From assembly GCA_943789305.1 (NCBI GenBank), contig CALSTP010000001.1, forward strand, positions 1,381,178-1,445,177: a stretch of DNA of 64,000 bases. The letters are read 5' to 3'. Numbering within the stretch: the stretch's first letter is position 1; each line of letters starts with the position of its first letter. Position numbers and translations under genes: made by a program. The notes below the pieces were generated by a model, which was not told the DNA's origin, searched no databases, and worked only from the letters and a program-made list of their open reading frames with translations. This document shows positions 9,262 to 62,714 of this stretch, piece by piece. The stretch is from an uncultured Flavobacteriaceae bacterium. GTDB taxonomy: Bacteria; Bacteroidota; Bacteroidia; Flavobacteriales; Flavobacteriaceae.

Positions 9262-10872
9262 TTATTCTAGAATAATCCAATCAAATTTTAAAGATAAAGG
9301 ATCGAGGTTTTGGGATAAAATAGACAATAATTCACTTCCATATTTAAGATAAAACTCTGAAAAATTTACTGTCCGCTCTTGTAATTTTTCATTTGGAAAA
9401 AGTAAATCATGAAGCAATATTAGCCTCTGTACTTGATCTTTTAACTTTCGCTTCTGAGCTTTTAACAATCTTTGCTCTAAATTATCAATACCCTTAAATT
9501 GTTTCTTTTTCTGAGCTTTTACTGCTCCTTCAAAAGAAGCATCTGTCTGGATTACCAATTTTTCTAATGAATCGAATTGCTTTTCTAAAGTTTTCTTTAA
9601 AAATCGAAGATCCAAATCAATATTACTGATTTGTCGAACTTTTTTATTAATCAATGAAGAACGCTTTAAAAAAACATCCAACGGATTCAACTGAATGTTT
9701 TGCATTTTTTTAGCAATTTTCTTGGTTACTAAAACTGCTGTGTTTCTGTGCAACAAAATTGGAAACAAAACTTTTTGAGATTCAAAATAGGACTTGAGTT
9801 CTAACCAATAAGCCAACTCTCCACCCCCTCCAACATAACATAGATTAGGTAAAACAGTTTCTTGATACAATGGGCGCATCAATACGTTAGGAGAAAATCG
9901 TTCTGGGGTTTTCTCGACCTCTTGTAATAATTCTTCTCGAGTCCATGAAAGGCTTGCATCTGCATCAGAAAAACCCTTTTCTGTTTGAATAATTCGTAAT
10001 CGATCGTTTTCAGTAAGATAAAATAAGTTGATTTTTCGGGGATTTACTTGTGGAACATATGAAGAATCGTAATCTGATTGAATTTTACTTATCGTTTTAT
10101 TGACATGAAACTCACAACTTCTTGACTGTAATTCTTCCTTTATTTTGGGTGCAAATTCCATTTTCAAAGCACGATCATCTCCATCAAGAATAACTAAACC
10201 TTCTGATTCAAATAACTTATGAACAAGCTTTCGGGTTGCTTCTGCAAGAGTTTGTGAAGACAAGTAACTTCCCTGGATCAATTCTTTAAGTTCTATGGCA
10301 GTCGAAGTAGTGCCTAAATTTTTTTCAAACACAGAAAACAAAGATTCAATACCATCTAGGGAAAATTTTCCTACTGCTCCTGCTTTCTTTCTATTCCATT
10401 TGAAATTCTTAGACTTAAAATTAAAAAAAGAAATTTCTTCAAAATCATGATCCTCAGTTGCCATCCAATAAATTGGAACAAAATTATATTTTGGATAAGC
10501 TATTTTTAAATTTTTACACAAATTAAGAGTGCTTATAATTTTATATAAAAAGTACAAAGGACCTGTCATTAAATTGAGCTGATGTCCTGTCGTAATTGTA
10601 AAAGTATTGTTCAGAGAAATACTTTTGATATTCTGATAAACTGGGCTATCTTTCAATAAAAGAGTATCATATTGTCTTTCGAGTGCATCGACCAATGTTA
10701 TTCTTTTATTTTCTGTAAAAGTCTTTTGTTTTTCTAAAAATTGTTTTTGAAAATTTTTAATCTCAGGAGTTTCTCCATAAAATTGACTTAATGGTTTATT
10801 TCCCTCAAAAAGATCGCATATGATTTTGGAAACATATCCTGACTTTCGATAAGAAATTTGTTGAGACCGCAT
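9262..10872 (-). CDS. bshC: Putative cysteine ligase BshC (bacillithiol biosynthesis)
   Basis: The family adds cysteine to glucosaminyl-malate in the last step of bacillithiol synthesis. Family features seen: the N-terminal SGYVSKIICDLFEGNKPLSQFY stretch, the Rossmann-like core with ITTGHQLNLMTGPLYFLYKI and YWMATEDHDFEEI, and a lysine-rich helical C-terminal half (about residues 400-500, probable coiled coil). At 536 residues it has normal length. The other bsh genes are not in the window. It stands alone, divergent from the M14 peptidase, with 92 bases between the two starts that must hold both promoters. The enzymatic assignment is by family; BshC activity has been inferred mostly from genetics in Bacillus. 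Confidence 0.9.
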   Translation of the reverse strand: MRSQQISYRKSGYVSKIICDLFEGNKPLSQFYGETPEIKNFQKQFLEKQKTFTENKRITLVDALERQYDTLLLKDSPVYQNIKSISLNNTFTITTGHQLNLMTGPLYFLYKIISTLNLCKNLKIAYPKYNFVPIYWMATEDHDFEEISFFNFKSKNFKWNRKKAGAVGKFSLDGIESLFSVFEKNLGTTSTAIELKELIQGSYLSSQTLAEATRKLVHKLFESEGLVILDGDDRALKMEFAPKIKEELQSRSCEFHVNKTISKIQSDYDSSYVPQVNPRKINLFYLTENDRLRIIQTEKGFSDADASLSWTREELLQEVEKTPERFSPNVLMRPLYQETVLPNLCYVGGGGELAYWLELKSYFESQKVLFPILLHRNTAVLVTKKIAKKMQNIQLNPLDVFLKRSSLINKKVRQISNIDLDLRFLKKTLEKQFDSLEKLVIQTDASFEGAVKAQKKKQFKGIDNLEQRLLKAQKRKLKDQVQRLILLHDLLFPNEKLQERTVNFSEFYLKYGSELLSILSQNLDPLSLKFDWIILE

Positions 10873-10964
10873 AAAGAATTTTGGTATTGTAAAGATATTC
10901 CTTATAAAGTAAATATAAAAATATAGGATTAATTTTATCTTTACGTTCGCGAAACAATTTATAC

Positions 10965-56278: not shown

Positions 56279-58144
56279 TTACTTTTCTAGGAAATCTTGA
56301 TAAGTGGTTTGCAAAATAGCTTTACCCTGATACTTTAAAGCTTCTTCTTCTTTTCCTTCGGCTTGAATGGCATCCTTTTTTATAAAATCATAAACGATAT
56401 GACCTGAATTATTTAGGGTTCCAAAACCTTCATTGAAAATATAATGAACAAATCGTTTTTTGTTTGAGTTAAACAAGTGTGTCCCAAATTCAAATAAACT
56501 GTTATCTGCTCCCAACAAATCTATCAATGTAAAGGCTAAATCAACCTGAGAGCCCAGATTATCATTTACAGTTCCAGTATTTGTCAAAGCTCCACCCAAC
56601 CATAACATCGGTATTTTAAATCGATTAGGAGTATTAAACACTTCATTTTCGTTATTTGGTAGAGGGTGGCCGTGATCTGCTGTAATTATAATTAAAGAAT
56701 TATCCCACCAATCTTGAGTTTTTGCAAAAGCTACAAAGTCTCCTATAGCTTTATCGGTATATGCCATTGAACTTTTGAATTTATTCAACTCTGAATTTTT
56801 CCCAAATCGATATTTGCCAGGAAATTCATAAGGTTCATGACTCGTTAAAGTCAAAATTGTTTTGAAGAAAGGGTTTTGTTTGTTAAGCTTTAAATCTTGA
56901 ATAATCCTTTCAAAAAGAACATGATCATGAACACCCCACTTGGAGTTCCAATCTTTTCGTTCAAAAATTTCAGATCCATAAATTTGATCAATACCCTTGT
57001 TATATAAATAAGTGTTCATATTTCCAAAATTCAAATCACCACCGTAATAAAAAGAATTGTGATAACCCATAATTTTCATTGATTGAGAAAGTAATGGAAG
57101 CTTTTTAGATTTCATGGGCATTTTTATGATGCTTTTTTTTGGTTGTGGATAATACCCACTCAAAAGACTCACCAACCCCTTATCAGTTCGATCACCATTA
57201 GCATAAAAGTTTGTAAACAATAAACCTTCTTTGGTATACCTATTAAAATTTGGAGTTATTAGAGGATCTCCCCCCAAGGGCCCAACAACCTTCGCAGTAA
57301 AACCTTCCCAAATAATGAAAATAATGTTTGGTTTTTTTGTGTTCAAAACAGGAGTCTGAATTGAATCCATTATAAGTAAAGGTTCCCGGTATTTTTTGAA
57401 AAGAGTTAAAGCTTTTTCAGTTGAATATTCTACAAATAGGTTTTGGTTTGCATCAACATGTTTGGTAATTGCATGCATAAAATTCCATGCGTAATTTACC
57501 GCTGCATGATTTGCATATATTTTATTTGAAAAATAAACATTGCTTTGGTTGATTGGAATTGTTTGTAAACCGCCTCTTATGGGAAGAATCAAAACACCAA
57601 TCAATAAGAATAAAAAGGGTAAACTCCAAAGTGAAGCTCGTCCCATTAGCTTGACGTGCTTGTAAATTAAAAAATTGACTGCGAGATAGATCAAATAAGA
57701 TAAGACTCCAAAACCAAAAAGAGCTACTATTATTTCGCTCATATTAACAGAAGCAAACATTAATTCTGGGGTGTTGAGATAACGAACAAATGTTGTGTCT
57801 AGTCGCGTATTCCAATATGAATACAAAAAAAGGTCGACAAACAAAAGGAAGTTCATTACCAAAAGTATAAACCAAGAATACGTTTGATGTATTGTCAAAA
57901 TCGCCCTACTGTTTGTAAAAACCCCAAATAAAACAATCATAAAAGGGAACACAACAATATATGCCGCTATTGATAGATCCAATCGAAAACCATAAATGAA
58001 AACATAAAAAAACTCACTTATGTCTAAATTTTTTGTTGAATTGAGATGATAAACGAGAAACACAAAACGAGCTACAACAAAATACAAAACCCAAAAACCA
58101 TAGTATTTGAGATTGAAAATAATTTTATTTAAGAGTGCGTTCAT
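56279..58144 (-). CDS. LtaS-like membrane sulfatase (phosphoglycerol transferase family)
   Basis: A 621-residue inner-membrane protein. Five hydrophobic segments lie in the first ~200 residues, then a long extracytoplasmic sulfatase-fold domain with FIIWEGFTAKVVGPLGGDP (metal-binding Glu), NGDRTDKGLVSLLSGYY (nucleophile Thr), and ITADHGHPLPNN (metal site). The LTA synthase family transfers phosphoglycerol or phosphoethanolamine to lipids or sugars. Gram-negative homologues modify membrane glycans; the acceptor here is unknown. It is the first gene of the leftward operon that runs through the esterase, MoxR and VWA genes. Confidence 0.88.
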   Translation of the reverse strand: MNALLNKIIFNLKYYGFWVLYFVVARFVFLVYHLNSTKNLDISEFFYVFIYGFRLDLSIAAYIVVFPFMIVLFGVFTNSRAILTIHQTYSWFILLVMNFLLFVDLFLYSYWNTRLDTTFVRYLNTPELMFASVNMSEIIVALFGFGVLSYLIYLAVNFLIYKHVKLMGRASLWSLPFLFLLIGVLILPIRGGLQTIPINQSNVYFSNKIYANHAAVNYAWNFMHAITKHVDANQNLFVEYSTEKALTLFKKYREPLLIMDSIQTPVLNTKKPNIIFIIWEGFTAKVVGPLGGDPLITPNFNRYTKEGLLFTNFYANGDRTDKGLVSLLSGYYPQPKKSIIKMPMKSKKLPLLSQSMKIMGYHNSFYYGGDLNFGNMNTYLYNKGIDQIYGSEIFERKDWNSKWGVHDHVLFERIIQDLKLNKQNPFFKTILTLTSHEPYEFPGKYRFGKNSELNKFKSSMAYTDKAIGDFVAFAKTQDWWDNSLIIITADHGHPLPNNENEVFNTPNRFKIPMLWLGGALTNTGTVNDNLGSQVDLAFTLIDLLGADNSLFEFGTHLFNSNKKRFVHYIFNEGFGTLNNSGHIVYDFIKKDAIQAEGKEEEALKYQGKAILQTTYQDFLEK

Positions 58145-58382
58145 TAAATCTAAATAAAGTCTTGAAACGATCAGCTACAAAAATGAATAAAAAAAAGGAA
58201 TACTAAAAAGTAAATCAAAAAATAATACTTTTATTTTCTAAACTTTCTGTGAAATGAAATATTGACTTATCAAGGTTTTCAAGTATTTTTTAATTGTGGT
58301 AACCATAGTTAGGATTAGTTGTCCGTTTCCAGGAGGATCTTAAAGTTTTGCTAGAATTATTATAAAGTCTACTCAATAAAAT

Positions 58383-58682
58383 CTAATCATTGGGACAAGT
58401 TCCCCAAACTGGTTTATTGACATCTGTTAAGGCTGAACCACCTGAAAATTCCTCAGGTTCAGATTGAAAATTTGAAACACACCAGCTGGATAAATCTTGA
58501 TTAAAATTTGTTGCTCCGCCAAACACATTTCTCATGTTGGTTAAACTTGAAACATCAACTGCTCCACCCTCTGAAGATGAAACACTTAATAAAAAAGTAA
58601 GTGTTTCGGGCTCATCTGGAACGGGAGAATCCTTCGAACAAGCAAGAAGTAGAATTAAAATAAAAAGAAATTCTTTTTTCAT
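58383..58682 (-). CDS. Short lipoprotein, apparently a shrunken BspA/InlB-repeat protein
   Basis: A 99-residue protein with signal peptide and lipobox (FILILLLACSKD). After the lipid Cys comes FLLSVSSSEGGAV, the start of an InlB B-repeat, and then directly DVSSLTNMRNVFGGATNFNQ and DLSSWCVSNFQSEP, a single BspA-type (DUF285) repeat and its C-terminal end (VNKPVWGTCPND). Full-length relatives have a whole InlB domain and many repeats between these parts, so an internal deletion is likely, leaving the frame intact. Surface-anchored at the outer membrane if made. I see nothing gene-like in the 238 bases between it and the sulfatase start. Confidence 0.65.
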   Translation of the reverse strand: MKKEFLFILILLLACSKDSPVPDEPETLTFLLSVSSSEGGAVDVSSLTNMRNVFGGATNFNQDLSSWCVSNFQSEPEEFSGGSALTDVNKPVWGTCPND

Positions 58683-58871
58683 TATTTATTTACTTAAATC
58701 AATAATCTACTCGAAAATTATCCCCATTAAAAAAGGAAGCCATTAGATTTGAAATATGTATTCAATATACTTATGAAATTTATAAATTTTATGATCTCAT
58801 GATTTATGAAAACATCTTTTTATAGCTATTTAATTAATATTTAGTACCTTAACATTAAAAAATATTGTCTT

Positions 58872-59096
58872 ATGAAAGAAATTTTATATACTTTGATTTT
58901 TACAGCGATACTTATGGGTAGTGTATATGCCTATGCCGTATATGCGACTAGAACTGGGCTAGAAGAAGATGAAAACAAGAATTTTATTCCGGATTCATGG
59001 GAAAAAAAATTCAAATGGGCTTTTACTGGTAAAGCTATCATTATGTTTGCATTAGGCTTTGGCATAGGTTTTTTAACAAATGAATTGTTTTTTTGA
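58872..59096 (+). CDS. Small two-span membrane protein
   Basis: A 74-residue protein starting MKEILYTLIFTAILMGSVYA with one hydrophobic segment at 4-24 and another at about 52-72 (TGKAIIMFALGFGIGFLT). The linker is acidic (GLEEDENKNFIPDSWEKK). No family recognised. The start and a 20-base A/T leader look normal, and it lies between two lipoprotein genes of opposite direction. Confidence 0.6.
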   Translation: MKEILYTLIFTAILMGSVYAYAVYATRTGLEEDENKNFIPDSWEKKFKWAFTGKAIIMFALGFGIGFLTNELFF

Positions 59097-59268
59097 ATTA
59101 GCAAAAATACTCGCATCAAATCCAAAAAGAAGTAACTAGCAACTAAAAAAGTGTTTCGTTTTTATCGCAATTATATTGTGTAATTATTAACATTTATTCA
59201 ATGGCACTTGGAACTCTTCAAGTATACTATAGGACTGCTATGTTGATGAAATTTTGTATATTTATTTA

Positions 59269-59610
59269 ATGAAAATTAATCTAAGAAGCGCTTTCATTTT
59301 ATCGTTTCTTTTCATAAACTCTTGTTCAAAGAATGCTACTGATCCAGAAGAACAAGCTCCTACTCAATATACCTTAACCGTTACTACTTCAGAAGGAGGT
59401 TTTGTAACACCAGATGCTAATGGGACTTATGATGCAGGAGCTGTAATAACAATTTCAGCAACTCCAAATGAAGGATATAAGTTTGATAGATTTTCAGGAA
59501 GTGATAATGATGATAGTAGATGCGGCTTTGCTCGTTACTGCCGAACTGCTATAAAAATGAATTCAAACAGAGATGTCCAAGTTTTTTTCAAACTAAGTAC
59601 TTCAGAATAA
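59269..59610 (+). CDS. Small lipoprotein with an InlB B-repeat
   Basis: A 113-residue protein from the ATG at 59269. It has a signal peptide and lipobox (FINSCSKN), then one InlB B-repeat: YTLTVTTSEGGFVTPDANG and DAGAVITISATPNEGYKFDRF. Two cysteines (CGFARYC) may form a disulfide. Surface-anchored; function unknown. The same SEGG repeat occurs in the lipoprotein at 58383, so the two may be related remnants or paralogues. Confidence 0.75.
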   Translation: MKINLRSAFILSFLFINSCSKNATDPEEQAPTQYTLTVTTSEGGFVTPDANGTYDAGAVITISATPNEGYKFDRFSGSDNDDSRCGFARYCRTAIKMNSNRDVQVFFKLSTSE

Positions 59611-59643
59611 ATTTTATTACTTTTTTGGTATTATCAATATATA

Positions 59644-59683
59644 TTGGAAGAAGATAGAAGATTTAAAAAATAGATGAATAAGT
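59644..59683. repeat. 40-bp direct repeat, left copy
   Basis: Identical to 62458-62497. It lies just beyond the terminator that follows the tRNA-Thr fragment, so the duplicated block is longer than the tRNA core and includes flanking DNA. Confidence 0.9.
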
Positions 59684-59697
59684 GCGCTAACAACCAT

Positions 59698-59727
59698 AAA
59701 AAAAAGGCTTAACCTTTCGGAGAGCCT
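59698..59727 (-). terminator. Duplicated tRNA-operon terminator, left copy
   Basis: On the minus strand AGGCTCTCC-GAAA-GGTTAAGCCT is followed by eight T's. It is the same hairpin as at 62520-62548 behind the intact tRNA-Thr(GGT). Confidence 0.75.
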
Positions 59728-59737
59728 AATATGGTTG

Positions 59738-59779
59738 AGCCAGCGAGCAGATTTGAACTGCCGACCTCTTCCTTACCAA
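59738..59779 (-). other. tRNA-Thr 3' fragment (attachment-site remnant or tRNA pseudogene)
   Basis: Identical to the last 42 nt of tRNA-Thr(GGT) at 62558-62599. Upstream on the minus strand (59780-59812) similarity to the 5' half is weak: only GCGTA and GGTAGA-like pieces recur, so no cloverleaf forms. This is either the leftover core of an integration or a decayed full copy. Confidence 0.8.
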
Positions 59780-59887
59780 AGAAGATATTCTACCTATAAA
59801 GATACGCTCATCCTTTATGAATACTCTGTTAAGTATTGAATTCATTGAAATTTAATTTTTAGATATAGCTATAAAAACCTATCAGAG

Positions 59888-59906
59888 GTTCGCTATAAGT
59901 TCGCTA
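59888..59906. repeat. 19-bp repeat GTTCGCTATAAGTTCGCTA, left copy
   Basis: Itself a double copy of TTCGCTA with TAAG between. It recurs exactly at 62496-62514, next to the other end of the element, and stands 38 bases before the integrase start. Possible integrase arm-type site; inferred. Confidence 0.6.
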
Positions 59907-59943
59907 TTTTTCGTATCTTGGTGTTAGTAATAAAAGAAGAGGT

Positions 59944-60138
59944 ATGGAAATAACAAAGCACCATAATTTCATATTGGCATTTATGCGACCGCTAGGGAAA
60001 AACAAAAAGCAAACTCTATATGTTAGATATAAATATGGCGGAGGCTCTCTGAAGAGTAAATCAACCCCCATTAGATTGCTAGGGCAGGATTGGGATAAGT
60101 CGAAACGCCACCTTTTCCAAGTTCCACCATATCTGTAG
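59944..60138 (+). pseudogene. N-terminal stub of a tyrosine recombinase/integrase
   Basis: 64 residues: MEITKHHNFILAFMRPLGKN, KQTLYVRYKYGGGSLKSKST and PIRLLGQDWDKSKRH. This pattern (strands of the arm-type DNA-binding domain, then the I/L-x-x-x-x-WD motif) is how Bacteroidota phage/transposon integrases begin; full proteins have about 400 residues. The frame breaks near codon 55, where sequence belonging to the opposite-strand CxxC gene begins, so a deletion removed the catalytic domain. An AGAAGAGGT-like leader and TATCTTGG (near -7) precede the ATG. The region 59780-59943 otherwise holds only the 19-bp repeat. Confidence 0.65.
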
Positions 60139-60269
60139 TGGGGGTTATTTCTTTTAACACTCAAGACGCACTGCTTACATGCAAACACCCAGTCTGAACC
60201 TTCCTTGAATTTCACACGATACATTGTCTTCCAGTCCTTATTACAGAGAGCACATAACTTTTGTCTCAT
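60110..60269 (-). pseudogene. Small CxxC (zinc-ribbon-like) protein, 3' end lost
   Basis: The first 52 residues look genuine: MRQKLCALCNKDWKTMYRVK, then FKEGSDWVFACKQCVLSVKR and NNPHYRYGGTWK, with CxxC...CxxC. Short proteins ending in Y-G-G-T-W-K occur widely in Flavobacteriia. After TWK the frame continues to 59904 but only as the antisense of the integrase stub, so the true C-terminus was cut. The protein may still be made with a nonsense tail. Function unknown. Confidence 0.55.
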
Positions 60270-60298
60270 TAAATAATCTTTAAATCATACTATATTGG

Positions 60299-60961
60299 TT
60301 ACGTTAACATAACCCAGATAATAAATATTATTATTACGGCAACAAGAAGAGCTACCCCAAAACTAAACATTTCAGATAATTCTTGATTTTTCTCCTTATC
60401 ACTTTGAAAAGTTTCAGAAATTTCTTCTCTAATTTTTGTTTCGGGCTGGCTTACCATTTTGGTTACATCTTCATTAATTTTATAACCCGTTGATATAATG
60501 TTTTTCTTCCCACAGTTGTCGCAAAATTTTGCATTAGGATTAATTTCTTGACCACAATCACATAATTGAATCTTGGGTTTTCTTACTATTTCTTCTCCAC
60601 ACTCGGAACAGAATTTAGCATCATCTTTAATTTTAGAACCACATTTACAACTATCATTTTTTTCAAATATTTTCTTAATAGATTTTTCTACTGGATTTAT
60701 ATTAGAATTTCCCCTGCTATTGTTTTCGCTCTTACTTCTAATCCAAATATTTTTATCAGCCCATTTAGAGTAAAAAAAGAAAATTAAAATTGGAAATCCT
60801 ACAACCCAAGAGTAAAAAGGCTGTGCGACCGTAAAAGCATTTTTCACTCCAAGTTCTTGAAGGCTTGATACTTTGAGTGTCTTTTCCATTACCATAATGA
60901 AACCAAATAAAAAAATAAAAACAAAAATTTTAATTACTCGTCTTAGTAATATATTATGCAT
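60299..60961 (-). CDS. Membrane protein with two zinc ribbons
   Basis: A 220-residue protein. Two N-terminal membrane segments lie at about 9-25 and 47-64, and one at the C-terminus at about 200-219. Between them are two zinc-ribbon units, C105/C107 with C118/C121, and C134/C136 with C147/C150 (pattern CxCGxxIxxxAKFCxxCG), like the 'zinc-ribbon' family. A charged helical linker joins the ribbons to the last helix. It starts 9 bases after the GIY-YIG gene and reads the same way, so the two form an operon. Function unknown. Confidence 0.78.
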   Translation of the reverse strand: MHNILLRRVIKIFVFIFLFGFIMVMEKTLKVSSLQELGVKNAFTVAQPFYSWVVGFPILIFFFYSKWADKNIWIRSKSENNSRGNSNINPVEKSIKKIFEKNDSCKCGSKIKDDAKFCSECGEEIVRKPKIQLCDCGQEINPNAKFCDNCGKKNIISTGYKINEDVTKMVSQPETKIREEISETFQSDKEKNQELSEMFSFGVALLVAVIIIFIIWVMLT

Positions 60962-60970
60962 AAGAATATT

Positions 60971-61807
60971 CTATTTTCGTTTTAAATCATCCAATGTTTT
61001 TCCCTCTATATTTTTCCAGTCTCTCCAGCCATTACTTCTTCTGGCTAGTACTGTCGCAGAAGCTGCACTTGGTGAATTAAATATGTGGTCTGTCTTAAAT
61101 AAATATCCATCATTGACTTCTTCCAAAACTCCACTTTCAATAAGTTTTTCTCTAGAATTAATAATATATTTCCCACCAGAATTAGTTACATTAAGATTAC
61201 ACTTACTGCCCTTATAAACAACAAAACCATCATCAGACATCTCTCCTTCTGCAAATGCTTTTTTGCCTTTACATATAAAAATCTCTTTTGTGTCATCTTC
61301 TTTTCTGATAGATTCAAATAAAGGATAGCCTAATGTAGCTAAAAGAATTTTAAGAGTTTCAAAATTATCTAATAAATCATATTCTCTACTTTCAGGCAAA
61401 GATGGTTTATTAGACCCTGTGTCATTTTCAGTTTTATATCTCCCATATTCCTCTGCTTTTTCTAAACAATGGTGTTCTAAAAATTTACCATCAGTTTTTG
61501 TAAATTCATTTGTTTTTGTTGTAACAATAACACAGTGAGTCCAAAATTCCTTATTTCTATTATGAGATTTTATTCGTTTAAAACAATCCTCTCCTTCTCC
61601 TATATATACTTTTGGTTTTATTAACTCATCTGAACTTCCAAATAAAAAGTAAACTCCTGTAAAATTTACTATCTCTCTCTTCGCGGCTTCTGCTAATTTA
61701 TTTCTAGGTATTAGAATTGCTTTTACAAGTCTGTTTGTTATTTCCGCCTCTCTTATGCTTGTAGGATGTCCATCAGGCAAGAAAATCTGTATAGTTTGTG
61801 GTTTCAT
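60971..61807 (-). CDS. GIY-YIG nuclease-like protein with C-terminal DUF4357 domain
   Basis: A 278-residue protein. The nuclease core has GVYFLF (51-56), VYIGEGEDCFKRIKSH (67-82, with R78 as the candidate catalytic arginine) and the metal-binding Glu in KFLEHHC (E111). The C-terminal ~55 residues, FNSPSAASATVLARRSNGWR, are DUF4357, a domain found at the ends of restriction-modification-like proteins. It is known as a combination in predicted nucleases; the target is unknown. First gene of a two-gene operon with the zinc-ribbon protein, inside the tRNA-Thr element. Confidence 0.85.
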   Translation of the reverse strand: MKPQTIQIFLPDGHPTSIREAEITNRLVKAILIPRNKLAEAAKREIVNFTGVYFLFGSSDELIKPKVYIGEGEDCFKRIKSHNRNKEFWTHCVIVTTKTNEFTKTDGKFLEHHCLEKAEEYGRYKTENDTGSNKPSLPESREYDLLDNFETLKILLATLGYPLFESIRKEDDTKEIFICKGKKAFAEGEMSDDGFVVYKGSKCNLNVTNSGGKYIINSREKLIESGVLEEVNDGYLFKTDHIFNSPSAASATVLARRSNGWRDWKNIEGKTLDDLKRK

Positions 61808-61870
61808 AATTTAAATCTACAAATTAATCACCAATAACTTTAAATACTCCTTTAAACTAAGATTACTATT

Positions 61871-61919
61871 ACTGTTCTTTTACTTATGCTGTTACTTTGT
61901 TTTGGCTTCCTTTGGGTCT
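61871..61919. repeat. 49-bp direct repeat, left copy
   Basis: Matches 62202-62250 with one mismatch. It includes TTACTTATGCTGTTACTTTG and GGCTTCCTTTGGGTCT. It lies 26 bases upstream of the small gene at 61945, and its final TTG may serve as the -33 of that gene's promoter (TAATTTTA at 61933-61940). Confidence 0.85.
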
Positions 61920-61944
61920 TGGCATTATTTTGTAATTTTAGGTT

Positions 61945-62196
61945 ATGAGAAAATTAATTAAGAATTATCTAAAAGACCCATTAGCTACCATAGCTATCAA
62001 TACAACAATATTCATTATGGGTTGTTTGTTCTTTGGAACATTAGCCACTATTGGTATAGTTTCTACATTTGTTAGGGATTATAAAAACCCTCCTACTGAT
62101 ATTCGTCATCAACACATTAAGCAGCATTCAGATGAGCAATTAAAATATAATGAAATGATAAAGCTGCTTGACTCTATTAATTCAAAATTGGAATAG
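61945..62196 (+). CDS. Small membrane protein between direct repeats
   Basis: An 83-residue protein with MRKLIKNYLKDPLATIAINT, one or two overlapping hydrophobic segments at about 15-42, then a charged C-terminal part (HQHIKQHSDEQLKYNEMIKL) likely to be a coiled coil. No family recognised. It is the only rightward complete gene of the element. The 49-bp repeat stands on both sides (26 bases upstream, 6 bases downstream), which resembles a cassette. Confidence 0.6.
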   Translation: MRKLIKNYLKDPLATIAINTTIFIMGCLFFGTLATIGIVSTFVRDYKNPPTDIRHQHIKQHSDEQLKYNEMIKLLDSINSKLE

Positions 62197-62201
62197 TTTA
62201 A

Positions 62202-62250
62202 ACTGCTCTTTTACTTATGCTGTTACTTTGTTTTGGCTTCCTTTGGGTCT
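62202..62250. repeat. 49-bp direct repeat, right copy
   Basis: See the left copy at 61871-61919. Between this copy and the 40-bp repeat at 62458, about 200 bases hold no gene, only an AT-rich inverted repeat near 62373-62406. Confidence 0.85.
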
Positions 62251-62457
62251 AGTGATTAACTAAATGAGTAAACTTTGTAACACACTCAAACTTTCTGTGT
62301 GGAGAGACTAGGGTAATAAGAAGAAGTGAAGTGAATTTTGGCAGAGTAGGTAAAATAGAGAACAAAAAACCTCTATAGTACTATTTATATATAGTACTAT
62401 ATATAGTTTCTTTTATTTATTTATATACTATATATATATTATGTGCCACCATGACAC
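62251..62457. other. Gene-free stretch with AT-rich inverted repeat
   Basis: No open frame of note. CTATAGTACTAT at 62373-62384 and ATAGTACTAT at 62391-62400 with TATATAG after it form an imperfect palindrome in low-complexity TA sequence. No function can be assigned. Confidence 0.5.
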
Positions 62458-62497
62458 TTGGAAGAAGATAGAAGATTTAAAAAATAGATGAATAAGT
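62458..62497. repeat. 40-bp direct repeat, right copy
   Basis: Identical to 59644-59683; it overlaps by 2 bases the 19-bp repeat at 62496-62514. Confidence 0.9.
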
Positions 62498-62514
62498 TCG
62501 CTATAAGTTCGCTA
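62496..62514. repeat. 19-bp repeat, right copy
   Basis: Identical to 59888-59906. It lies between the 40-bp repeat and the terminator of the tRNA operon. Confidence 0.6.
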
Positions 62515-62519
62515 AACAT

Positions 62520-62548
62520 AAAAAAAAGGCTTAACCTTTCGGAGAGCC
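62520..62548 (-). terminator. Terminator of the tRNA cluster
   Basis: AGGCTCTCC-GAAA-GGTTAAGCCT followed by seven T's on the minus strand, 10 bases after the 3' end of tRNA-Thr(GGT). Confidence 0.85.
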
Positions 62549-62557
62549 TTATATGTT

Positions 62558-62629
62558 GAGCCAGCGAGCAGATTTGAACTGCCGACCTCTTCCTTACCAA
62601 GGAAACGCTCTACCCCTGAGCTACGCCGG
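62558..62629 (-). tRNA. trnT: tRNA-Thr (GGT)
   Basis: A 72-nt cloverleaf: acceptor GCCGGCG/CGCTGGC, D-arm GCTCAGGGGTAGAGC, anticodon loop TTGGTAA (GGT), T-loop GTTCAAATC. No CCA encoded. Its 3' half is duplicated at 59738-59779, so it is the likely attachment gene of the element on its left. Confidence 0.97.
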
Positions 62630-62641
62630 CAATAAAAAGAG

Positions 62642-62714
62642 AGCGAGAGACCGGGTTCGAACCGGCGACATTCAGCTTGGAAGGCTGACGCTCTACCAAC
62701 TGAGCTACTCTCGC
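62642..62714 (-). tRNA. trnG: tRNA-Gly (TCC)
   Basis: A 73-nt cloverleaf: acceptor GCGAGAG/CTCTCGC, D-arm GCTCAGTTGGTAGAGC, anticodon loop CTTCCAA (TCC), T-loop GTTCGAACC. No CCA encoded. Confidence 0.97.

What the first reader, a model, noticed from the sequence alone, without database searches (positions are those of the whole stretch)
59644..62629. Remnant mobile element in the 3' half of tRNA-Thr(GGT)
Seen: 46 identical bases of tRNA-Thr 3' half at 59734-59779 and 62554-62599, plus the same terminator hairpin and an identical 40-bp flank on the far side of both, about 2.8 kb apart. An integrase N-terminal stub reads inward from the left copy. Known: tyrosine recombinases use tRNA 3' halves as attachment cores. 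Inferred: an element inserted here and carried a copy of the tRNA end and flank, then lost its integrase. The cargo is a two-gene GIY-YIG/zinc-ribbon operon and a small membrane gene between repeats.
Basis: partly seen in the sequence, partly recalled or inferred. Interest (0 to 1): 0.7.

Follow-up and report, generated by a model that had tools for sequence, protein, structure and literature searches.

The report
Decayed genomic island in tRNA-Thr gene
A marine Flavobacteriaceae genome carries the leftovers of a mobile DNA island that inserted into a threonine tRNA gene, a spot where related species still carry a complete island or an empty site, so it is an ordinary kind of element in unusually good comparative context.

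Summary
The 3' half of tRNA-Thr(GGT), a terminator hairpin and a flank are repeated at 59644-59783 and 62458-62604; all 92 directly repeated 19-mers of the window lie in 59600-62700. The decayed-island reading is supported. Two species of the genus carry at this tRNA an island sharing 22.46 kb at 99.86% identity, with an integrase starting 157 bp inside the far tRNA fragment; the window's homologous 64-codon stub starts 164 bp inside. A third species has the empty site. Each element has its own tandem arm repeat (GTTCGCTA here, GTTCACTA there). The integrase was cut near 60112 by fusion to a zinc-protein gene remnant. Corrections: foreign DNA reaches back to about 58296; the shared flank is probably an element arm, so two related elements may have stacked; the GIY-YIG gene matches defence candidate PDC-S14; the repeats round the small membrane gene are 5' ends of a decayed multicopy gene. 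Against: the closest relative lacks far core and stub and its contig ends before the tRNA. A remnant of a known kind.

The parts
62558..62630 (-). tRNA-Thr(GGT), intact target gene
   Evidence: ARAGORN, Rfam 64.3 bits
62558..62600 (-). attachment core, near copy: tRNA from anticodon loop to 3' end (43 bp)
   Evidence: pattern search; same 43 bp bounds the G002 island
59737..59779 (-). attachment core, far copy (displaced tRNA 3' half)
   Evidence: Rfam 29.0 bits for 59742-59808, at the family cut-off; not called by ARAGORN
62458..62557 (.). element arm (P) beside the tRNA, with terminator hairpin 62515-62557
   Evidence: repeat D3/D4, fold z -2.6
62496..62514 (+). tandem arm-type repeat GTTCGCTA x2, P arm
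   Evidence: function inferred
59888..59906 (+). tandem arm-type repeat GTTCGCTA x2, P' arm (integrase side)
   Evidence: function inferred
59944..60111 (+). integrase N-terminal stub (probable arm-binding domain)
   Evidence: 29% to G013 integrase, 33% to FRAM18 integrase, 0 of 1000 shuffles reach either score
60112..60269 (-). remnant of a small zinc-protein gene fused to the stub; junction about 60112
   Evidence: 84% DNA match to G016 begins at 60112; integrase alignments end at 60114-60123
60299..60961 (-). zinc-ribbon membrane protein, cargo
   Evidence: PF13240, PF12773; no relative at E 1e-3 in the DNA held around 12 other GIY-YIG genes
60971..61807 (-). GIY-YIG / DUF4357 protein, cargo; matches PADLOC candidate defence gene PDC-S14
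   Evidence: PF14267 (GIY-YIG itself below cut-off there), PDLC04925 E 4.8e-107
61945..62196 (+). small membrane protein gene, cargo
   Evidence: ORF; 75-77% DNA relatives in G013:C2 and G015:C13
61871..61927 (-). 5' end of a decayed MPRPKGS-type gene, copy 1
   Evidence: intact 70-aa relative L135:7308-7520
62202..62258 (-). 5' end of a decayed MPRPKGS-type gene, copy 2
59644..59736 (.). left flank and terminator: probable arm of an older, stacked element
   Evidence: whole repeat 97% to the right copy outside gaps; 86% over 126 bp, core included, to G012:C4
58296..59643 (.). foreign block left of the far copy (lipoproteins, small membrane ORF), absent from the G018 empty site
   Evidence: partly shared with G001 and G006
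56279..58144 (-). sulfatase gene, host neighbour of the empty site
   Evidence: PF00884; on the tRNA side in G018, G009, G012 and, through the contig join, G002; present in G001 and G006 on contigs without the tRNA

Best explanation
The interval 59780-62557 is the remnant of a genomic island that integrated site-specifically at the anticodon loop of tRNA-Thr(GGT). The element's tyrosine recombinase bound tandem arm sites (GTTCGCTA x2) in both arms and crossed over in the 43-bp core, so the element's own tRNA 3' half restored the gene and the host's 3' half was displaced to 59737. A deletion later fused the integrase after about 56 codons to a zinc-protein gene, so the element can no longer move by itself; it keeps a candidate defence gene (PDC-S14) and two small genes. 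The block to its left (58296-59736), which ends in a near copy of the element's arm, is probably what is left of an older related element at the same site. Shown: repeats, stub homology, occupied and empty sites in other species of the genus, the fusion point. Inferred: arm-site function, strand exchange, order of events, stacking.
For: Repeats and arm sites. Homologous integrase at the same tRNA and in the same orientation, 164 bp versus 157 bp from core to start codon. G013/G002 island 99.86% identical over 22,462 aligned bases; the G002 contig ends in 43-bp cores with 12 nt of tRNA 5' half on one side and 12 nt of native flank on the other. G018 empty site collinear with the G002 far junction, 86% over 561 bp. 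Arm motif at up to 1 mismatch in 19 genomes: 7 hits, 6 in the arms of these elements. Stacking: left flank matches the element arm, not the native flank of G018/G002; FRAM18_bin161 has an integrase on either side of a tRNA-Thr(GGT) copy, 65% and 29% identical to the G013 one. A tRNA-Ala(GGC) island in the same genome has the same layout.
Against: The closest relative G001 shows no far core or stub and ends before the tRNA. The stub is below Pfam's cut-off for Arm-DNA-bind_5 (18.2 of 22.6 bits, E 0.0036), and an unrelated family, TcaA_3rd_4th, scores about as well (E 0.0028), also below cut-off; identity is only 29-33%, and it shows no likeness beyond shuffles to the tRNA-Ala integrase. The reversed-pattern control for the arm motif gave 5 hits against 7, so the motif alone is weak; G013 shows it only in the integrase-side arm. 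In FRAM18 the left copy is a complete tRNA-Thr and tRNA-Gly, not a 3' half. DNA right of the far core keeps slight likeness to a tRNA 5' half (0.8-2% of 2000 shuffles score as well). No core was found left of the older block.
Confidence: 0.87

Rival explanations
1. Single integration with an unusually long core: the element's attP carried tRNA 3' half, terminator and flank copied from this host lineage, so the left flank is native host DNA and no older element is needed.
For: Terminators of similar shape follow tRNA-Thr(GGT) in G003, G005, G010 and G017 and lie outside the far core of G013. In Riemerella anatipestifer a 10-kb island has a 53-bp repeat beside tRNA-Arg (passages); that this repeat ends in a terminator-like hairpin is my reading of the printed letters.
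Against: G018 and G002, which share the sulfatase neighbour with the window, have another native flank without this terminator. The shared flank holds the arm-site region, and an 86% copy with a tRNA-Thr 3' half lies away from the tRNA-Thr locus in G012.
Confidence: 0.3
2. Ancient tandem duplication of the whole tRNA-Thr gene whose 5' half decayed; no integration.
For: Rfam scores 59742-59808 at 29.0 bits, just at the cut-off; the 5' side is slightly tRNA-like; FRAM18 does have a duplicated complete tRNA-Thr and tRNA-Gly pair.
Against: Close identity stops within a few bases of the anticodon loop, as in the G002 and G013 islands; an integrase stub with arm repeats follows at similar spacing; empty and occupied sites exist in the genus.
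Confidence: 0.05
3. Chance accumulation in a hypervariable region: the repeats arose by homologous duplication and the stub is unrelated debris.
For: The region holds several decayed fragments whose relatives lie elsewhere in the genus; in G001 part of it is present without core or stub.
Against: Core, arm repeats, stub, orientation and spacing agree with intact elements.
Confidence: 0.04

Closest known systems
tRNA-targeted genomic islands as defined by Islander (PMC4383910, passages seen), anticodon-centred (class A), 3' fragment
   Same: Intact tRNA gene, displaced 3' fragment in the same orientation on the downstream side, integrase sequence inside, length over 2 kb.
   Different: Integrase reduced to a 64-codon ORF; probable older element beside it.
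Island of G013 (record AC_MB531) and G002 (record HE327_NSB034) found here
   Same: Same tRNA, same core, homologous integrase on the same side at similar spacing, tandem arm repeats.
   Different: 22-26 kb with an intact integrase frame and, by reading the ORFs, aromatic-catabolism-like cargo; arm repeat GTTCACTA instead of GTTCGCTA; integrase 29% identical over the stub.
Riemerella anatipestifer 10K genomic island (PMC6764341, passages seen)
   Same: Flavobacteriia (recalled), integrase beside a tRNA, direct repeat at both ends; integration and excision shown there by experiment.
   Different: tRNA-Arg, 53-bp repeat, IntN1-like integrase; no relation tested here.
Tandem accretion of integrated elements, e.g. 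Streptococcus suis ICEs and IMEs (PMC7168690, passages seen)
   Same: Successive elements stacked at one target, as inferred here.
   Different: There both members are recognisable and often mobile; here the older one is inferred from an arm and a foreign block.
PDC-S14 (PADLOC candidate defence gene)
   Same: The GIY-YIG/DUF4357 cargo gene matches at E 4.8e-107.
   Different: A candidate only, function untested; carried by a dead element.

Membership tests
tRNA-targeted genomic island (Islander criteria) | intact tRNA gene plus a fragment of it in the same replicon | tested here: met
tRNA-targeted genomic island (Islander criteria) | fragment is the 3' end, downstream of the tRNA, same orientation | tested here: met
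   both on the minus strand, fragment 2.8 kb downstream
tRNA-targeted genomic island (Islander criteria) | contains an integrase open reading frame | tested here: not met
   only a 64-codon ORF with an integrase N-terminus; filed as a remnant, not as a working island
tRNA-targeted genomic island (Islander criteria) | length 2-200 kb | tested here: met
   2.8 kb between the cores
tRNA-targeted genomic island (general) | empty site in relatives | tested here: met
   G018, another species of the genus; not seen in the closest relative G001
tyrosine recombinase (the intact relative in G013) | homology to known integrases | tested here: met
   no hit of its own at E 0.01 in Pfam, NCBIfam, PHROGs or PDB sequences (Arm-DNA-bind_5 only at E 2), but E 7e-11, 21% over 455 columns, to the tRNA-Ala integrase, which passes two Pfam integrase-domain cut-offs
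tyrosine recombinase (the intact relative in G013) | catalytic R..K..HxxR..Y | tested here: inconclusive
   matching residues seen by eye (motif recalled); the structure job had not finished
integrase arm-type sites | same repeat in both arms, bound by the integrase | tested here: inconclusive
   repeats present in both arms of the window and G002 elements, in one arm of G013; binding not testable with these tools
PDC-S14 | full-length match to the PADLOC model | tested here: met
   residues 1-277 of 278 to 13-296 of 301

The most novel reading that the evidence does not exclude
tRNA-Thr(GGT) of this genus is a stacking dock used by a little-described branch of tyrosine recombinases. Each element carries its own pair of tandem arm repeats and an arm that may supply the tRNA with a new terminator. 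Successive elements stack, decay and leave cargo, here a defence candidate, and cargo genes are exchanged between docks at tRNA-Thr, tRNA-Ala and tRNA-Arg through dispersed pieces of the MPRPKGS gene.
Probability: 0.3. Interest if true: 0.55.

Novelty: new member of a known kind. Interest (0 to 1): 0.42.

Why it matters
The genomes of this marine genus are small (1.4-2.2 Mb held) and many are fragmented MAG-like assemblies, where mobile elements are hard to see. This locus gives an empty site, two copies of one island that differ by 0.14% between species, and a decayed copy, all at one tRNA, so gene flow in an uncultured genus can be followed step by step. It also shows an integrase that had no hit in the three profile libraries and the PDB sequences tried, so islands of this kind could be missed by routine annotation.

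Tried and rejected
Rejected: full ancient tRNA duplicate (see rivals). An integron-type cassette array for the dispersed MPRPKGS repeats was considered, because copies tend to lie between same-strand genes (30 of 38 neighbouring ORFs of at least 100 aa on the same strand, 19 copies; the table listed same-strand ORFs only and is no test). RNAalifold found no well-supported hairpin over the repeat (-1.0 kcal/mol) and no integron integrase was looked for, so this is left open and not claimed. A degenerate core left of the older block was not found: best scores lie within the range of 60 shuffles. The stub found only the window's own genome among 397 family genomes at E 0.001, and G002 and G013 at E 0.005-0.006 among 19 genus genomes. 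The G013 integrase gave 0 of 395 order genomes (that set held no genome known to match). None of the integrase, the GIY-YIG gene or the exact core was found in viral contigs. No integrase of the three types tested was found at E 1e-3 in the 12.9-18.2 kb fetched around 9 of the 12 other GIY-YIG genes; the other 3 were not fetched at that size.

Literature: 6 searches. Passages seen: PMC4383910, PMC4164334, PMC6764341, PMC7168690. Abstract and outline seen: PMC9897764. Other papers were seen only as listings. No paper of the held library has Flavobacteri, tRNA-Thr, integrase and genomic island together; that is a statement about that one search.
Full report
What is there. The window ends beside a cluster of tRNA genes on the minus strand, Thr(GGT), Gly(TCC), Tyr(GTA), Thr(TGT). 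The 3' half of tRNA-Thr(GGT), from the anticodon loop to the 3' end, recurs 2.8 kb downstream at 59737-59779, with a terminator hairpin and a 46-bp flank beyond it. Over the whole repeat 135 bases are identical, 4 differ and 9 are gaps. All 92 19-mers repeated on the plus strand of the 64-kb window fall in 59600-62700. A second exact repeat, GTTCGCTATAAGTTCGCTA, lies in both arms, at 59888-59906 and 62496-62514, in the same orientation.

Relatives. The genome is 2.08 Mb in 2 contigs, about 90% complete, and belongs to a genus of which 19 genomes, the window's own included, could be searched. A locus with a related integrase is titled MS024-2A, so the genus is probably that lineage of uncultured marine Flavobacteriaceae (inference). 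The tRNA core, at up to 2 mismatches, was found in 12 of 19 genomes; 4 of 19 (G000, G002, G012, G013) have more than one match.

Occupied site. G013 has a core 22.5 kb from its tRNA-Thr(GGT), and a 539-aa integrase frame starts 157 bp inside the far core. G002 has the same island on one contig: 22,462 aligned bases are 99.86% identical and the integrase is identical over 539 aa, although the two hosts differ in their tRNA core sequence. The G002 contig has 12 nt of the tRNA 5' half before one core and 12 nt of native flank after the other; the second side continues, by sequence overlap, in contig C89 through the native flank to the sulfatase gene. G002 carries about 3.3 kb beside the tRNA that G013 lacks. 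Contig lengths identify G002 and G013 with the MAG records HE327_NSB034 and AC_MB531 (contig lengths). The G013 copy lies inside a 369-kb contig, which speaks against contamination there.

Empty site. G018 has tRNA-Thr(GGT) and sulfatase homology with no insert. Its sequence is collinear with the core, native flank and sulfatase start of G002 over 561 bp at 86%. In the window the likeness to this native flank stops at about 58295. So the foreign stretch relative to G018 is about 58296-62557, 4.2 kb, and includes the lipoprotein genes left of the far core. G009 has about 0.8 kb between sulfatase and tRNA and only one core match. G012 has about 16 kb.

The closest relative. G001 (96% over 2.3 kb of the sulfatase side) matches the window to 58271, again at 58609-59138 (93%) and 60204-60284 (87%), and its contig ends at 5220 without reaching the tRNA. 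It lacks the lipoprotein, far core and stub between the last two blocks. G006 shares the left block to 58484 and a 43-bp piece at 59063. So the left block is older than these splits, but G001 neither confirms nor excludes integration of the right element.

Integrase stub. The 64-codon ORF at 59944 is 29% identical to the G013 integrase over 55 columns and 33% over 52 columns to a broken integrase beside a tRNA-Thr(GGT) in FRAM18_bin161. None of 1000 shuffles reached either score; against the tRNA-Ala integrase 186 of 1000 did, so there is no signal there. It scores below the Pfam cut-off for Arm-DNA-bind_5, next to an equally weak hit to an unrelated family. The integrase alignments end at residues 57-60, that is 60114-60123, and from 60112 on the DNA matches a sequence of G016 that in the window is the end of a small zinc-protein ORF on the other strand. 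The loss is therefore best read as a deletion that fused the two near 60112. The G013 integrase has no hit at E 0.01 in Pfam, NCBIfam, PHROGs or the PDB sequences, but aligns at E 7e-11 (21% over 455 columns) with the tRNA-Ala integrase of the window's own genome, which passes two Pfam integrase-domain cut-offs. The scan of the GTDB collection for it gave 3 loci: the two above and FRAM18_bin161 at 65%.

Arm repeats. In G002 the corresponding places hold GTTCACTAATGGTTCACTA and GTTCACAAATGGTTCACTA. In 19 genomes the general motif at up to one mismatch has 7 hits: 6 in these arms (2 each in G000, G002 and G013, the G013 pair overlapping in one arm) and 1 in an unrelated coding region of G017; the reversed control has 5. 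The motif was derived from these arms, so its specificity is partly circular; what is not circular is that the window and G002 elements each have their own version in both arms. G013 shows it only on the integrase side. The tRNA-Ala(GGC) island of the same genome repeats the layout with GGGTAATA pairs, read by eye.

Stacking. By the integration model the flank left of the far core should be host DNA. It is instead a near copy of the element's arm, and unlike the native flank of G018 and G002. A copy 86% identical over 126 bp, core included, lies on another contig of G012, 3.5 kb from tRNA-Arg(ACG), also with a lipoprotein gene next to it. Lipoprotein paralogues are common in the genus, so that neighbourhood alone is weak. 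FRAM18_bin161 shows an integrase on either side of a tRNA-Thr(GGT) copy, so stacking at this tRNA probably occurs, though its left copy is a complete tRNA-Thr/tRNA-Gly pair, which a simple integration does not produce. I give stacking about 0.6 and a single integration with a long core about 0.3. Similar terminators beside the core in five other genomes keep the second model alive.

Cargo. The GIY-YIG/DUF4357 gene matches the PADLOC candidate PDC-S14. It occurs in 13 of 149 genomes searched and, among the 19 of the genus, only in the window's. The zinc-ribbon gene 9 bp downstream has no relative at E 1e-3 in the DNA held around the 12 other copies, from under 1 kb to 9 kb or more per side, so the operon is not a conserved pair. 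The small membrane gene has relatives in G013:C2 and G015:C13. The 57-nt repeats that flank it are minus-strand 5' ends of a small gene family (MPRPKGS...; intact 70-aa copy L135:7308-7520), whose pieces are dispersed in the genus.

How it most likely works. Shown: the repeat structure, the homologous intact element, the empty site in another species, the fusion. Inferred: strand exchange in the anticodon loop, restoration of the tRNA by the element's 3' half, arm binding, then loss of the integrase by deletion and slow decay with retention of cargo. As a working island it fails one defining criterion, an integrase ORF, and is filed as a remnant.

Noticed in passing
L135:3800-10873 (G000:C2, window's own genome): A second island at tRNA-Ala(GGC): 3'-half copy at 10826-10873 (81%), 442-aa integrase reading inward, GGGTAATA pairs in both arms (by eye), and a lipoprotein gene whose DNA is 88% identical to window 59305-59616.
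   Followed up: partly
L036/L037 and L077/L078 (G013, G002): An island with aromatic-catabolism-like genes (names from reading the ORFs, not from a search) shares 22.46 kb at 99.86% identity between two species.
   Followed up: partly
G000:C1:1182486-1182790 (L080:8487-8791): A decayed 305-bp piece of the PDC-S14 gene, 91% identical to window 60959-61264, sits between two other genes.
   Followed up: partly
L135, L139, L151, L155, L034 and window 61871-62258: Pieces of a 70-aa MPRPKGS gene are dispersed: 42 model matches in 10 of 19 genus genomes; in G000, 6 of 7 lie in or just beyond the tRNA-Ala island. 30 of 38 neighbouring ORFs are on the same strand. No well-supported RNA fold; role unexplained.
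   Followed up: partly
L155:8190-19780 (FRAM18_bin161): A complete tRNA-Thr(GGT)/tRNA-Gly pair is present twice, 9.5 kb apart, with an integrase that appears to lack its N-terminus inside and a broken one outside.
   Followed up: partly
L034:9707-9832 (G012:C4): Orphan tRNA-Thr 3' half with terminator and flank, 3.5 kb from tRNA-Arg(ACG) and away from the tRNA-Thr locus of that genome. A paper on related Gulf of Maine flavobacteria reports a variable region beside a tRNA-Arg (PMC4164334, passages); whether it is the same place was not tested.
   Followed up: partly
L034:12483-12863 and L139:1755-2033: Short ORFs with HxH-like motifs that recall rolling-circle replication proteins lie near island genes (by eye, motif recalled).
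   Followed up: no
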